The notes under the pieces are model-generated. The model searched no databases. It was not told where the DNA came from and saw only the letters and a list, made by a program, of their open reading frames with translations. DNA of 29,778 bases from a virus, in IMG/VR virus record IMGVR_UViG_3300042289_000085, positions 1 through 29,778 of that record, one strand, 5' to 3'. Position 1 is the first letter of the stretch; every line of letters begins with the position of its first letter. Positions 22,041 to 27,199 of the stretch are shown here, piece by piece. The translations under genes and the position numbers were made by a program.

Positions 22041-23616
22041 CGATAGCTTCAGGGTTCTTCGAAGGATCAAGTAGTGGAGACTTAGCGAAGTCGCTAGCCT
22101 GGTTAATCATGCTCTGGTTTGTGGCCATTTGCATGGCTTGCTTCTGATCATTCGCCTGTTCTTCTGCTGTCTTAACAAGGTTGATCGGATCAATACCTTG
22201 AGCAGCAGCCAGACGCTTAATCGCTTCATCAGGGTTGATGAACTTAGCAAGCATCTCAGGACCAAGAGCCTGTGAGATGGTTTGAATAAAGATAATCAAA
22301 GACTCACGATCTTGACCTCTACCAATACCTTCAATACCCGCCACTACTGTCGGGAACACCACACCCTTCGGAAGCTTAGGAAGTTCCTTTGCTCGTTGAA
22401 GAATGAATAGTTTACGTTGAAGATAAGGTTTAAGAAGTTCCGTAGTAAGGTTTCCATAGATACCACCAAGCTGCTCATTGAGTTCTTGTTGGGTAGCACG
22501 GATCTCTTCTGCGGTTGTGCGTTCGCTTTGACGAACAGTAAGGATCAGGAAGGCCTCACTCAACCGTTGATTCAGTTGGGTGATCATTTGATAGGCAGTG
22601 GCAAAGTCAGCCTGTTTGGCAACTTGAACCACAGACACGTCGTCTTGCCTGCCTTGAATAATAGCACCATTACCAGCCCTGGCAAGCGTTGACGGCTTGA
22701 CCGTAGCAGATGGTGCAACAAGGAACACTACCTTGGCAGCAGCAGCAGAACCCTCTACCATTGCTTGCATCAGCCCCTCAAGGGACTTCAGATCGCCAAG
22801 ATACTCTTCTATACGACCACGCCCATAGTCTTCACCATCCACCACATTAAAACGGAGGGGAAGCCAGGGACTCGTAGTCTTTGGAGATTTGCCATAGCTG
22901 TCTTCAATGATTTCACCGTCAACTTCTTGACGCCATCTCCACATTCCATCCTTGAGTTGTGCCCAGGTATAGACGGCAGCTTCATCCTCACCAACAGTTA
23001 CATCAACAGAAGGCGTGGACGTGTTATCATCCACACGATTGGCAGCACTCTTAGGAGTTTGAAATCTTTCGGGAAGGAATTGTCGGTTGATTGATTCAAC
23101 AGTAACGATCTCGGTGGGGTTACCCTCTCCATCACGGACGACCACAAAACGGTCAAGAGGATAAAGTTTAACACCACTCGAACCCATGTAGACCAGGACA
23201 TTCCCGGTTACAATCAGATGCTTCATTGCCTGGTGAAGGATAACACGATCCTGTGATTCGGCAATGTGTTGCATAATAACCCGCTCCATTTTGGAGAGGC
23301 TTAAGTCAATCTCTGATTTGATCTTAGCATCAAGAGTCGGGTCCGAGGCGAGCTTACCGTCGTTGATCTGAAGCTTAAAAAACGTAGCCGTCACAGGGAA
23401 CAAGCTAAGCATAAGCTTCGAGGCCATGACGTTCACACCTTTAGCCCCAATGGATTGCCAAGGAGTGGGCAGCTTCTGACCATTTACAACACCGGTGGGT
23501 GTCAGTAGGTAGGGCAGACTAAGGCGAGCACACTCCCTAGCAGTATCAAGGAAGATCGTTCTGTCGCTTGCCAAACGAGCATACCGGCTAGCAGCAGATT
23601 GATTATCCATGATCAT
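21988..23616 (-). CDS. Portal protein (T7 gp8-like head-tail connector)
   Basis: A 542-aa protein; T7 gp8 has 536 aa. The N-terminal YARLASDRTIFLDTARECARLSLPYLL pattern and the middle region IRATQQELNEQLGGIYGNL and ELLKPYLQRKLFIL are characteristic of T7-type portals, which make the 12-subunit ring where DNA enters and leaves the head. Two starts are possible: ATG at 23616 (overlapping the upstream stop, ATGA) or ATG at 23610 (MDNQSAASRY), which has an AAGGA about 7 bases before it and may be the true start. The C-terminus ends with QQAGRTPAVQ. Confidence 0.94.
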   Translation of the reverse strand: MIMDNQSAASRYARLASDRTIFLDTARECARLSLPYLLTPTGVVNGQKLPTPWQSIGAKGVNVMASKLMLSLFPVTATFFKLQINDGKLASDPTLDAKIKSEIDLSLSKMERVIMQHIAESQDRVILHQAMKHLIVTGNVLVYMGSSGVKLYPLDRFVVVRDGEGNPTEIVTVESINRQFLPERFQTPKSAANRVDDNTSTPSVDVTVGEDEAAVYTWAQLKDGMWRWRQEVDGEIIEDSYGKSPKTTSPWLPLRFNVVDGEDYGRGRIEEYLGDLKSLEGLMQAMVEGSAAAAKVVFLVAPSATVKPSTLARAGNGAIIQGRQDDVSVVQVAKQADFATAYQMITQLNQRLSEAFLILTVRQSERTTAEEIRATQQELNEQLGGIYGNLTTELLKPYLQRKLFILQRAKELPKLPKGVVFPTVVAGIEGIGRGQDRESLIIFIQTISQALGPEMLAKFINPDEAIKRLAAAQGIDPINLVKTAEEQANDQKQAMQMATNQSMINQASDFAKSPLLDPSKNPEAIDAARNLIQQAGRTPAVQ

Positions 23617-23966
23617 CCTTGAGAGGAGGGAACGTTAAGAGGTGAACCAGCACCAATGCCACTCGTAGGAACACGAAGACGCTGGGCAGGGGTTTGACGC
23701 ATAGGGGCTTTCAGTTGTTCAGCACCTTTGCCTGCTTGGCCTTTGACCCGAGCAGAAGCAGCAGATTGAATCTTTGCAACCTTTTCACCAGCAGAAACCG
23801 GCGGCGGGGGTGGAGGAGGCGGCGGAGCAGGAGCCTCAGGGGCAGGCATATAACGCACCTCAGGGGCCGGAGGAGGCGGGGGAGGCGCAGGTGCAGGCGG
23901 GGGAGGCGGAGGAGGGGGAAGAGCTGGCATCGGCGGAGGGGCCGGAGGTGCCGAAGCAAAACACAT
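23613..23966 (-). CDS. Polyproline gp7.3-like protein upstream of the portal
   Basis: A 117-aa protein with extreme proline content in its first half: eight Pro in a row at 17-24, six at 28-33 and nine at 48-56, separated by Ala/Met/Glu. The second half is basic and helical (EKVAKIQSAASARVKGQAGK) and ends with RLRVPTSGIGAG..LNVP. That C-terminal pattern (basic, then RLRxP, then GlyxGxGxxLNxP) recalls the gp7.3 tail or adsorption protein placed just before the portal in T7, which ends SSGGGINI. The gene therefore probably encodes a virion or tail assembly protein. It begins MetCysPheAla like some small virion proteins. The polyproline would stall ribosomes without EF-P. Confidence 0.8.
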   Translation of the reverse strand: MCFASAPPAPPPMPALPPPPPPPPAPAPPPPPPAPEVRYMPAPEAPAPPPPPPPPPVSAGEKVAKIQSAASARVKGQAGKGAEQLKAPMRQTPAQRLRVPTSGIGAGSPLNVPSSQG

Positions 23967-23970
23967 GGTT

Positions 23971-24171
23971 CTAAGATGGTTCGGTTTTTTGTTTAAGGTA
24001 TCGAATCACAGCAATAGCACCAGCCTGAAAGGCCATTTCTTTTTCAGAAATTGTATGATTCGGAAAACGATCAGGATACATCTCTTCAAGCTCTTCAATA
24101 AGCCGAAGTAGATCAACCCTACCCCCTACTATATGTGTAAGGGGCAGAGTATCCTCATCAAGGTAAGCCAT
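23971..24171 (-). CDS. 66-aa protein, unknown function
   Basis: A small acidic protein (MAYLDEDTLPLTHIVGGRVDLLRLI, then EELEEMYPDRFPNH) with helices in its second half (EKEMAFQAGAIAVIRYLKQ). It lies 3 bases after the nrdB stop and 4 bases before the polyproline gene start, so it is part of the same transcription unit. No Shine-Dalgarno or domain was recognised. The stretch MAFQAGAIAVIRYL could pack as a small helical dimer. I have no functional hypothesis. Confidence 0.7.
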   Translation of the reverse strand: MAYLDEDTLPLTHIVGGRVDLLRLIEELEEMYPDRFPNHTISEKEMAFQAGAIAVIRYLKQKTEPS

Positions 24172-24174
24172 GGA

Positions 24175-24906
24175 TTAACCATATTGTGGAAGATCGGTGT
24201 TTGCTGCCTCAAAAAAGGCAGGCATTCGGGCTCGTTGGGTATCCTTAAGGCCAGGAGCTTTTCCCTTTTCATAGAGGGAATCAGACTGACTCATCCAGAA
24301 GTCCTTATTCAAGTACTTGTTTTCGGACATACCAAGGCTATCCATCACCCATCCCACAGTCGCTCGGCGTAAGCGATTAAGGCTTGGTGTAGATTTGAGG
24401 CCGAGTTCGGAACAGACCATCGAGTGTATGGCAACGTGCGTTTGCTCGTCACGACTGATGTCTGCTGCTGTGGTGCGGATTCCGACGTCTCCGTTGAATC
24501 GGAAGAAGGGGAGGATAACGAAGAAGACACTGCGCTCCAGGATAGCTGCTTTAAGTATCGGATGCTCAGGTGCATCAAGCCAAGCCTTTAAAATATGCTT
24601 AGCTTCTTCCTCATACTTGGGGTTAGCACCGTGGGCATCAATTACATAATTCAATGCCTGGTCATGGTTCTCTTCATCACGTTGGTTGGAGAGTAATGCC
24701 TCCCGTACACCAGGTGTTTTGGGGAGTTCTTTCTCCAGTCCTTGTTGAAGAAACTCACGCACAGGCAATTCCAGGTGGCGAAGACCAAGGGCGCGTTTGA
24801 GTGCGTCCTCGGCCCCCTCTACCACCTTTCCCTTTTGAACCGCCACTGGGGTCCACTTGCGTTTGCGGCTGATAACTTGATCGTAGGGCGAAAGGGTTGG
24901 GCTCAT
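24175..24906 (-). CDS. nrdB: Ribonucleotide reductase class I beta subunit (short NrdB, ferritin-like)
   Basis: A 243-aa ferritin-like protein. Two EXXH-type metal motifs are visible, E78-x-x-H81 (DEENH) and E154-x-x-H157 (DEQTH), with a further carboxylate at E124 (AILERSVFF) and one from the E51-E60 helix. These match the di-metal ligands of class I beta subunits (E. coli E115/H118, E204, E238/H241). The residue four after the first His, where E. coli carries the radical Tyr122, is Leu85; the nearest Tyr is Y87. The protein is about two-thirds of the usual length (about 375 aa). The start overlaps the NrdA stop by 4 bases (ATGA). Compact NrdB genes next to the cyanophage NrdA, with a changed radical site, are known in T7-like cyanophages as far as I recall. 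Confidence 0.88.
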   Translation of the reverse strand: MSPTLSPYDQVISRKRKWTPVAVQKGKVVEGAEDALKRALGLRHLELPVREFLQQGLEKELPKTPGVREALLSNQRDEENHDQALNYVIDAHGANPKYEEEAKHILKAWLDAPEHPILKAAILERSVFFVILPFFRFNGDVGIRTTAADISRDEQTHVAIHSMVCSELGLKSTPSLNRLRRATVGWVMDSLGMSENKYLNKDFWMSQSDSLYEKGKAPGLKDTQRARMPAFFEAANTDLPQYG

Positions 24907-26342
24907 TCTCCGCAGGGGATACAGGGTTCGTTTTCGGGTTTAACAGTGGGACAGCCGCAATCAGGGTCAACATCCTGCTCAAAACCAAAGAGATCACGAA
25001 AGTCTTCATCAAGAGCAGCAAGTGCATCATCTTTAGCTTGAGTGTCAGGCATCACCTGAAGAGAATAATAGAGACTCGTCTGAGGGGAATACATCCACTC
25101 ATAAATAAACTCTCTATCATAAGTAACAACATCAGACCAGGAGTTAAACGAATACCCATGGAAGAGAAGTGTGCTTTGGAAGAGGCGGACAATACCATCT
25201 GCTACTTCTTTATAAGCATCCCAACCTACTTCAGAAGCAATCTCGATGTCCGGCGGGTAGTCATAAGATTGGACTCCAAAAGTCCCACTATCCCTATCGA
25301 TGTGACGAGAGATAGGAGGGGCCAACTCTGGGGCAGTAGTATAGCCACGCAGATCGACGTTGTTATAAGAGCAGGAAGCCGTAGGCGCAATAGCAAAGGC
25401 GCGATCCATCTTATTGGACCGAGCAATCTGTGCTGCAATCTCAATGGCTTTTGCAAGTTCAGATACAAGGACGTAGGCCGGAGTGTGCTCCGGTTGATGA
25501 GTATGGAATTTGGTAAGGGCGTCTCCAAACTCTTTATACGTTACGCCGTTCTGGCAAAGAAAGTTAGCCAGACCAAGAATACCAAGGCCAACCTGACGGT
25601 CAGTCTCGGGGGGTAGATATTCTCCTGTGTCACCCACACCTGTCTTGGCGTGGAGATCAACAAGAGTACTCATACCTTCAGTAAACGCCGGAACCAAGTC
25701 AGTAATACTGCAAGCTCCGAGATTGATATGCTGAAGAAGGCAGGTACCGCGACTAGGAAGATAGACCTCCAAACAAACGTTACCGTAGATGCGCTTGCCC
25801 TCAGCATCGTATCGAATCTTGTTAAGCCAAATGTCTCCCTTTTTGATTCCATCAAGGGTTGCATCAATCAACTCATCAGAGGCATACTTAAGAAAGTTTT
25901 CATCTATGTTGAGACAACGCTTGACCCAAGCAAGATCAGATCGAGAGGCCTGAAGAAACTCAAGAGCATCCGGGTGGGTATAATCGAGGTGACAGACTAC
26001 TGCCCCATTTTTATACACACCACCACGCCTCAGGGTTTCGTTGAGTGCGGAGTAGATGCGGGCAAAGGAGACGGGACCAGATGCCGTAAGGCCCTTTCCA
26101 TTCTCTGCCCCACGAGCACGGAGCTTAGAGAGATGAACAGCAACGCCAGCTCCATTACGCAAAGCGTGCGAAACAAAGCGCCATGAGGCTTCAATGCCTT
26201 CAGGCCCTTCCATACTATCTTCAACAACGAAGACCGTACAACTGACGGGTAGGCGAGATTCAGGGTTGTCAATCCAGTTTTGGACACGTCCAGTACGGGC
26301 GATAGTGTTTGGGGTGTCGCCAAAATCAGCGTAAGCGGTCAT
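24903..26342 (-). CDS. nrdA: Ribonucleotide reductase class I alpha subunit (short NrdA)
   Basis: A 479-aa protein that reduces ribonucleotides to deoxyribonucleotides. The active-site pattern is complete: C35 (PVSC) and C211 (NLGAC) as the redox pair, N188-C190-E192 (NVCLE) as the Asn/Cys/Glu set, a phosphate-binding PTASCS at 320-325, and the Tyr-Tyr pair Y425-Y426 (TSLYYSL) that relays the radical in class I enzymes. Four Cys near the end (462, 464, 474, 477) would act as the reducible tail. There is no N-terminal ATP cone, and the protein is far shorter than the 761 aa of E. coli NrdA. The Tyr pair and the neighbouring NrdB argue against the class II label often given to such cyanophage enzymes. 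Confidence 0.92.
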   Translation of the reverse strand: MTAYADFGDTPNTIARTGRVQNWIDNPESRLPVSCTVFVVEDSMEGPEGIEASWRFVSHALRNGAGVAVHLSKLRARGAENGKGLTASGPVSFARIYSALNETLRRGGVYKNGAVVCHLDYTHPDALEFLQASRSDLAWVKRCLNIDENFLKYASDELIDATLDGIKKGDIWLNKIRYDAEGKRIYGNVCLEVYLPSRGTCLLQHINLGACSITDLVPAFTEGMSTLVDLHAKTGVGDTGEYLPPETDRQVGLGILGLANFLCQNGVTYKEFGDALTKFHTHQPEHTPAYVLVSELAKAIEIAAQIARSNKMDRAFAIAPTASCSYNNVDLRGYTTAPELAPPISRHIDRDSGTFGVQSYDYPPDIEIASEVGWDAYKEVADGIVRLFQSTLLFHGYSFNSWSDVVTYDREFIYEWMYSPQTSLYYSLQVMPDTQAKDDALAALDEDFRDLFGFEQDVDPDCGCPTVKPENEPCIPCGE

Positions 26343-26347
26343 CGGTA

Positions 26348-26716
26348 TTAAAGAAGATCTTCGAGGATAGGAGGTTGGTAGTTTGGCCCCTTCAGAACTT
26401 TACCATCTTCGCGGCGGAGGGGCTTGCCGTCCACGAGTTTGCTCATGTTTGATTCAAAAACACGGCGCATGGCCACATCTAAATTCCAGCCACGAGCAGC
26501 AGCATACTGGTAGCAAACAAACACAAGGTCGGCCAGCTCTTTGAGTTGGTCTTCCTTGGTAACGCCATACAGTTCTTGTACAAAGGCTTCCCCCAGTTCA
26601 CGAAACTCTTCTTCAATAAGACTAAATTGAAGTTCGTAAACGTTTTCGTCGGGGGTGTTGATTGGTTGTTCCATTGCCTCACGAAAGGTAATGGCCTGTT
26701 GGAGCAGCGATGACAT
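26348..26716 (-). CDS. mazG: MazG-type nucleotide pyrophosphohydrolase
   Basis: A 122-aa all-helical protein with the metal-binding motifs of the MazG/PRA-PH superfamily: E35-E36-E37 in LIEEEFREL and E60-x-x-D63 in LKELADLVFVCY. These enzymes hydrolyse nucleoside triphosphates to monophosphate and pyrophosphate. Cyanophages carry related genes and it is proposed that they shift nucleotide pools or host stress signals. The gene sits next to the ribonucleotide reductase genes in a nucleotide metabolism cluster. It begins 2 bases after the DUF3310 stop. Confidence 0.85.
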   Translation of the reverse strand: MSSLLQQAITFREAMEQPINTPDENVYELQFSLIEEEFRELGEAFVQELYGVTKEDQLKELADLVFVCYQYAAARGWNLDVAMRRVFESNMSKLVDGKPLRREDGKVLKGPNYQPPILEDLL

Positions 26717-26718
26717 GG

Positions 26719-26934
26719 TTAGCGGTTGCGCTCTTGAGAAATTTGTTTGATCTTACGTTCAACGTAAGCTTTGACTTTGAGCCAATCATCCAGTTCGGAC
26801 TCGTAACTCTTGTGGCCTGCGCGGCAAACATACTTAACTACGTTGCCAGCAAGGTAATCAAGGTTTTGGTCAAGGATAAAATCCCAAACCTCAATCGTCC
26901 CTCTCTTGTAATGATTCGGACTGTACTTGCTCAC
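26719..26934 (-). CDS. DUF3310 protein (T7 gp1.7 domain family), GTG start
   Basis: The core is SPNHYKRGTIEVWDFI near residues 5-20, then LDYLAGNVVKYVCRAGHKS and a Lys/Arg-rich end. This HYxxGxIEVxDFI...GNVxKYxxRAG pattern is typical of DUF3310, the domain also found in T7 gp1.7 (a nucleotide kinase-related protein). A GTG at 26934 is taken as start because it lies just before the conserved part and keeps the overlap with the upstream membrane protein to 44 bases; a much longer frame upstream (to 27153) is open but is shadow sequence of the neighbouring gene. The context is nucleotide metabolism, but the molecular role is unclear. Confidence 0.75.
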   Translation of the reverse strand: MSKYSPNHYKRGTIEVWDFILDQNLDYLAGNVVKYVCRAGHKSYESELDDWLKVKAYVERKIKQISQERNR

Positions 26935-27199
26935 GGAAGAACTCTTGGTAGTCGGGGTTGTTGATAATGCTTTGGAGTCTACGATTTGCCAGAAATCGTC
27001 CCAAGGCATCATTTCGGAGTGATCGTCTATCGAGCCACAGTTGCACTCCAAGGACGATTTGATTTCGTCGTAACTCGATCCAGACGGGAATGGCGGTGAG
27101 GATAAGGTCAATGGCGTGGAAAACGTTGCGATCAAGGACATAGACAATAGCAAGAACTAAGCCGATGTCAAGCCCAATAAGGACTGGGGTGGGTTCCAT
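26891..27199 (-). CDS. 102-aa membrane protein, function unknown
   Basis: An AAAGGAG lies 7-8 bases upstream of the ATG, the clearest ribosome binding site in this part of the window. The N-terminal half is strongly hydrophobic (LIGLDIGLVLAIVYVLDR, then AIDLILTAIPVWIEL), probably one or two TM helices. The C-terminal half is basic and polar (RRNQIVLGVQLWLDRRSLRN...) with a long helix and ends in QSESLQERDD. The start overlaps the exonuclease stop by 43 bases, and the end overlaps the DUF3310 gene by 44 bases. No family is recognised. Confidence 0.75.
   Translation of the reverse strand: MEPTPVLIGLDIGLVLAIVYVLDRNVFHAIDLILTAIPVWIELRRNQIVLGVQLWLDRRSLRNDALGRFLANRRLQSIINNPDYQEFFREQVQSESLQERDD

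What the first reader, a model, noticed from the sequence alone, without database searches (positions are those of the whole stretch)
24175..26342. Compact class I ribonucleotide reductase whose beta subunit has Leu at the radical tyrosine position
NrdA has the Tyr-Tyr relay (Y425-Y426) and the NrdB motifs E78-x-x-H81, E124 and E154-x-x-H157 of class I, yet Leu85 sits where E. coli Tyr122 would be. Both proteins are much shorter than usual, and NrdA lacks an ATP cone. The beta subunit may use another radical, a Mn/Fe or other cofactor, or Y87. I recall T7-like cyanophage RNRs being reassigned from class II to class I with such small beta subunits, so the pair may be known, but its chemistry remains worth testing.
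Basis: partly seen in the sequence, partly recalled or inferred. Interest (0 to 1): 0.7.

Follow-up and report, generated by a model that had tools for sequence, protein, structure and literature searches.

The report
Cyanophage class Ø ribonucleotide reductase pair
This is a small phage enzyme pair that makes DNA building blocks; its odd feature, a leucine where most such enzymes keep a radical-carrying tyrosine, is real but is already the published hallmark of a known group of cyanobacterial-phage enzymes whose chemistry has not yet been measured.

Summary
The minus strand carries overlapping genes for a 479-aa RNR alpha (24903-26342) and a 243-aa beta (24175-24906). Its predicted fold matches class I R2 proteins (VIA Z about 20), and an unconstrained alignment puts Leu85 on E. 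coli Tyr122. In 183 sequences that site is Leu (178) or Phe (5), never Tyr. W18, D153 and Y242 of beta, with Y425-Y426 and C190 of alpha, keep the class I radical-transfer chain. This is not new: it is the Cyano SP group (Harrison 2019, proposed subclass If), later named class Ø (Burnim 2022). Those papers already report the short beta, Phe/Leu at the Tyr site, the missing ATP cone, the Tyr dyad and an alpha structure (7URG). The window's alpha matches 7URG at E = 3e-211, and gene order follows cyanophage Syn5. Most likely beta keeps its oxidant on a Mn-containing dimetal cluster, as in class Ic or Id; the metal is unmeasured. A small extra: the alpha tail has both CXC and CXXC.

The parts
24903..26342 (-). 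Class Ø RNR alpha (NrdA-like), 479 aa: C190 (thiyl), C35/C201 redox pair, Y425-Y426 dyad, C-terminal C462-G-C464 and C474-x-x-C477; no ATP cone
   Evidence: 7URG, E 3.3e-211, aligned residues; no ATP cone
24175..24906 (-). Class Ø RNR beta (R2/ferritin-like), 243 aa: ligands E46 E78 H81 E124 E154 H157; D77, D153, W18, Y242; L85 at the Tyr122 site
   Evidence: (phrog_6799)
24652..24654 (-). Codon of Leu85, at the site of E. coli Tyr122
   Evidence: position arithmetic from the ORF start at 24906; register
26348..26716 (-). MazG-type/PRA-PH nucleotide pyrophosphohydrolase directly upstream; same neighbour in Syn5
26719..27153 (-). DUF3310 protein (annotated nucleotide kinase in phages), same neighbour in Syn5
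23971..24171 (-). Small ORF downstream of beta, at the position of Syn5 gp35

Best explanation
A class Ø (Cyano SP) ribonucleotide reductase of a T7-like cyanophage. Beta is a minimal R2 that binds two metals through E46/E78/H81/E124/E154/H157 and reacts with O2 or a reduced oxygen species. Having no Tyr beside the cluster, it keeps the oxidising equivalent on the metal cluster itself. The hole moves by D153-W18 and C-terminal Tyr242 to alpha Y426-Y425 and makes the C190 thiyl radical that reduces the nucleotide; C35/C201 are re-reduced by the Cys-rich tail. Shown here: residues, register, predicted fold, conservation, operon. Inferred: metal-centred oxidant, most likely Mn/Fe (Ic-like) or Mn2 (Id-like), and the transfer path.
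For: Alpha matches the S-CBP4 class Ø structure 7URG at E 3.3e-211. Beta is 67% identical to Syn5 gp34 and 53% to P-SSP7, and all P-SSP7 ligands of Harrison's Table 3 are matched, E/E/H/E/E/H with D/D in the second sphere. The predicted fold matches R2 proteins at Z about 20, tied between subclasses. Site 85 is Leu 178, Phe 5, Tyr 0; ligands, W18, D153 and Y242 are invariant where present. An unconstrained alignment keeps all of them in register with E. coli. Gene order follows Syn5. Burnim reports Phe/Leu at this site in class Ø. Classes Ic and Id use the metal cluster as oxidant (PMC11883743), and both have Glu at the first ligand position, as here.
Against: No metal, EPR or activity data for any class Ø beta were found in the papers searched. 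Sequence similarity of beta to class I R2 is below significance (Pfam 12.4 bits against cut-off 33.6; hhalign probability 0.45%). The second-sphere Asp77 differs from Ic (Glu) and Id (Cys/Ser). The short C-terminus lacks the usual alpha-binding tail, and residues 226-243 are modelled with low confidence, so the position of Y242 is not shown.
Confidence: 0.8

Rival explanations
1. Beta forms a stable radical on Tyr87 (H81+6) instead of the missing Tyr122.
For: Y87 is Tyr in 175 of 183 sequences and lies two residues from the usual site.
Against: Phe in 8 sequences that sit on scattered branches of the beta tree. C. trachomatis class Ic R2 has the same F/Y spacing (HTHTFLY) and uses a Mn/Fe cluster as its oxidant (PMC11883743).
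Confidence: 0.06
2. It is an ordinary class Ic enzyme (Mn(IV)/Fe(III)) and not a distinct class.
For: Leu/Phe at the Tyr site, Glu as first ligand; the best, though non-significant, PDB profile matches include C. trachomatis R2 (E 0.045); Z 20.3 to 4m1i.
Against: Second-sphere Asp in place of Glu; fold scores tie with other subclasses; Harrison's beta trees separate Cyano SP from Ic; alpha is closest to class Ø 7URG.
Confidence: 0.1
3. Alpha is really a class II (B12-dependent) enzyme and the ferritin-like protein does something else.
For: Weak alpha matches favour class II models (NrdJ_Z 72 bits against NrdE_NrdA 59 bits), and older annotations say class II.
Against: Invariant Tyr dyad, which in the S-CBP4 structure is stacked next to the catalytic Cys, in the space that holds the adenosyl group in class II; alpha lies directly upstream of beta in 155 of the loci, 157 of which have at least 600 bases there; beta has invariant ligands and C-terminal Tyr.
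Confidence: 0.04

Closest known systems
Class/clade Ø RNR (Burnim et al. 2022, PMC9531940; S-CBP4 alpha 7URG) = Cyano SP, proposed subclass If (Harrison et al. 2019, PMC6370689; P-SSP7)
   Same: Short alpha without ATP cone, Tyr dyad, short adjacent beta, E/E/H/E/E/H ligands with D/D second sphere, Leu/Phe at the Tyr site, beta ending one residue after its C-terminal Tyr, gene order of T7-like cyanophages
   Different: Window lineage carries both a CXC and a CXXC motif in the alpha tail, where the paper sorts complete sequences into CXXC or CXC
Class Ic RNR (Chlamydia trachomatis R2)
   Same: No Tyr at the radical site, Glu first ligand, R2 fold
   Different: Asp instead of Glu before the first ExxH, about 100 residues shorter, no significant sequence similarity, different clade
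Class Id RNR (Flavobacterium johnsoniae)
   Same: Glu first ligand, alpha without ATP cone, oxidant expected on the metals
   Different: Id keeps the Tyr (not used as radical); second sphere Cys/Ser
Class Ia RNR (E. coli NrdAB)
   Same: Ligand register, W48/D237/Y356 equivalents, Tyr dyad
   Different: Tyr122 replaced by Leu85, D84 by E46, no ATP cone, much shorter

Membership tests
Class Ø / Cyano SP RNR | Alpha closely related to characterised class Ø alpha | tested here: met
   7URG E 3.3e-211 over residues 13-469; about 71% identity to S-CBP4 over residues 14-431
Class Ø / Cyano SP RNR | No ATP cone, Tyr-Tyr dyad, double-Cys tail | tested here: met
   No ATP-cone match; Y425-Y426; CXC and CXXC both present
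Class Ø / Cyano SP RNR | Short ferritin-like beta directly downstream | tested here: met
   243 aa, 4-base overlap
Class Ø / Cyano SP RNR | Ligand pattern E,E,H,E,E,H with D,D second sphere; Phe/Leu at Tyr site; C-terminal Tyr plus one residue | tested here: met
   searches compared
Class Ic RNR | No Tyr at the radical site | tested here: met
   L85
Class Ic RNR | Second-sphere Glu before first ExxH (E119 in C. trachomatis) | tested here: not met
   D77, invariant
Class Ic RNR | Mn/Fe cofactor | not testable with these tools
   needs metal analysis and EPR
Class I R2 (Pfam PF00268) | Score above the curated cut-off | tested here: not met
   12.4 bits against 33.6
Class I R2 (Pfam PF00268) | R2 fold with ligands on four helices | tested here: met
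   Model pLDDT 89; Z 18.8-20.5 over about 220 residues to R2 chains; register. Ligand geometry not measured
Class II RNR | Adenosylcobalamin dependence | not testable with these tools
   needs an activity assay

The most novel reading that the evidence does not exclude
The beta uses a dimetal cofactor or activation route distinct from Ia-Ie (a true new subclass), and in the window's lineage the four-Cys tail of alpha forms a two-step disulfide relay.
Probability: 0.2. Interest if true: 0.6.

Novelty: already known. Interest (0 to 1): 0.22.

Why it matters
Class Ø is proposed to sit near the split of class I and II RNRs, and its radical chemistry is unmeasured; a solved cofactor would bear on how oxygen-using RNRs arose and on how phages avoid B12 dependence in cyanobacterial hosts. 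This window adds one more sequence and a conservation census, not a new phenomenon.

Tried and rejected
Single-sequence phmmer of beta against PDB found nothing, and hhalign of the beta profile against E. coli NrdB or nine R2s was not significant; the register rests on MAFFT merging, motif spacing and fold. The profile search of PDB put C. trachomatis R2 among its top rows, but at E 0.045 that is not evidence for Ic. Fold Z-scores tie across Ia-Ie, so they cannot assign a subclass. Literature searches for a later biochemical study of class Ø beta found none in the open library; subscription papers are not covered. NCBIfam gave nothing for beta.

Full report
What is there. The minus strand of the window carries, in transcription order, a family A DNA polymerase, an exonuclease, a DUF3310 protein, a MazG-like pyrophosphohydrolase, RNR alpha (24903-26342, 479 aa), RNR beta (24175-24906, 243 aa), a small ORF, a proline-rich ORF and the head-tail adaptor. 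From the exonuclease to the head-tail adaptor, cyanophage Syn5 has the same order: exonuclease, kinase, pyrophosphohydrolase, alpha, beta, gp35, proline-rich protein, portal (Syn5 has one more small gene, gp30, after the exonuclease). The window is therefore part of a T7-like cyanophage genome; it is a 29.8-kb virus record.

Residues. Alpha has C190 (catalytic), C35 and C201 (redox pair), Y425-Y426 and Cys at 462, 464, 474 and 477, matching C185, C30/C196 and Y420-Y421 of S-CBP4 alpha. Beta has E46, E78, H81, E124, E154 and H157, with D77 and D153 just before the two ExxH motifs. This is the pattern published for P-SSP7, and P-SSP7 itself also has Leu at the site. An alignment merge of 54 class Ø betas with nine class I R2 proteins, made without constraints, puts W18 on W48, E46 on D84, E78 on E115, H81 on H118, L85 on Y122, E124 on E204, D153 on D237, E154 on E238, H157 on H241 and Y242 on Y356 of E. 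coli (E. coli numbers without the start Met).

Conservation. In 184 betas from phages, viral contigs and genome contigs (window included), 183 cover site 85: Leu in 178, Phe in 5, Tyr in none. Y87 is Tyr in 175 and Phe in 8. The Phe87 rows fall on several separate branches of the beta tree (L008, L046, L057, L072, L082, L084), so Tyr87 is dispensable in evolution and unlikely to be an obligatory radical site; many inner branches of that tree are weakly supported, so the number of separate changes is not exact. Ligands, W18 and D153 are invariant wherever present, and Y242 is present in all 179 sequences complete there.

Fold. AlphaFold2 on the 54-sequence alignment gave mean pLDDT 89.4 with helices carrying E46 (33-57), E78/H81/L85 (67-92), E124 (116-138) and E154/H157 (141-168); residues 226-243 are poorly defined. 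All listed VIA-align matches are class I R2 proteins at Z 18.8-20.5 over about 220 residues, with subclasses tied. Sequence methods do not detect this kinship significantly.

Mechanism. Shown: class I-like ligand set, relay residues, predicted R2 fold, operon partner, absence of Tyr at the site. Inferred: an O2-derived oxidant kept on the metal cluster, as in Ic (Mn/Fe) or Id (Mn2), and hole transfer D153-W18-Y242 to Y426-Y425-C190. The first ligand Glu is shared with Ic and Id, whereas Ia and Ib have Asp. My split, as judgement only: Mn/Fe 0.45, Mn2 0.3, Fe2 or other 0.25.

Known status. Harrison et al. 2019 (PMC6370689) found this beta in P-SSP7, noted the missing Tyr and the unique ligand pattern, and proposed a new subclass. 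Burnim et al. 2022 (PMC9531940) placed the group as class Ø, solved an alpha, and stated that its ferritin-like proteins have Phe or Leu at the radical site and end just after a C-terminal Tyr. A 2026 preprint still calls the group biochemically uncharacterised (PMC12918982). The finding is therefore correct but known.

Small additions. In 46 close relatives (beta at least 85% identical) 37 alphas have both CXC and CXXC in the tail (DCGC...CIPCGE) and 9 have CXXC only; relatives with 62-75% identical beta have CXXC only, and nearly all those below 62% have CXC. This mixed state in one lineage is not described in the passage read, which sorts sequences into CXXC or CXC. In Microcystis phage Mic1 the alpha lies about 12 kb from beta, unlike the adjacent layout described for complete operons.

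Noticed in passing
24903-26342 (alpha residues 455-479): Alpha C-terminus holds two Cys pairs, C462-G-C464 and C474-x-x-C477; 37 of 46 close relatives share this, more distant ones have only CXXC or only CXC.
   Followed up: partly
L090 (Microcystis phage Mic1) and L194; L102 and L197: A divergent branch (beta about 36%, alpha about 46% identical to the window) has its class Ø-like alpha and beta genes roughly 12 kb apart instead of adjacent.
   Followed up: partly
L082, L083, L084, L085, L086, L088: Contigs filed under Planctomycetota, Verrucomicrobia, Bacteroidota and Euryarchaeota genomes encode this beta; phage contigs mis-binned into the genomes are the likely cause.
   Followed up: no
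23613-23966: 117-aa ORF extremely rich in Ala/Pro, at the place of the Syn5 proline-rich protein gp36; no PHROG match.
   Followed up: no
24903-24906: Alpha stop and beta start overlap by 4 bases, suggesting translational coupling.
   Followed up: no
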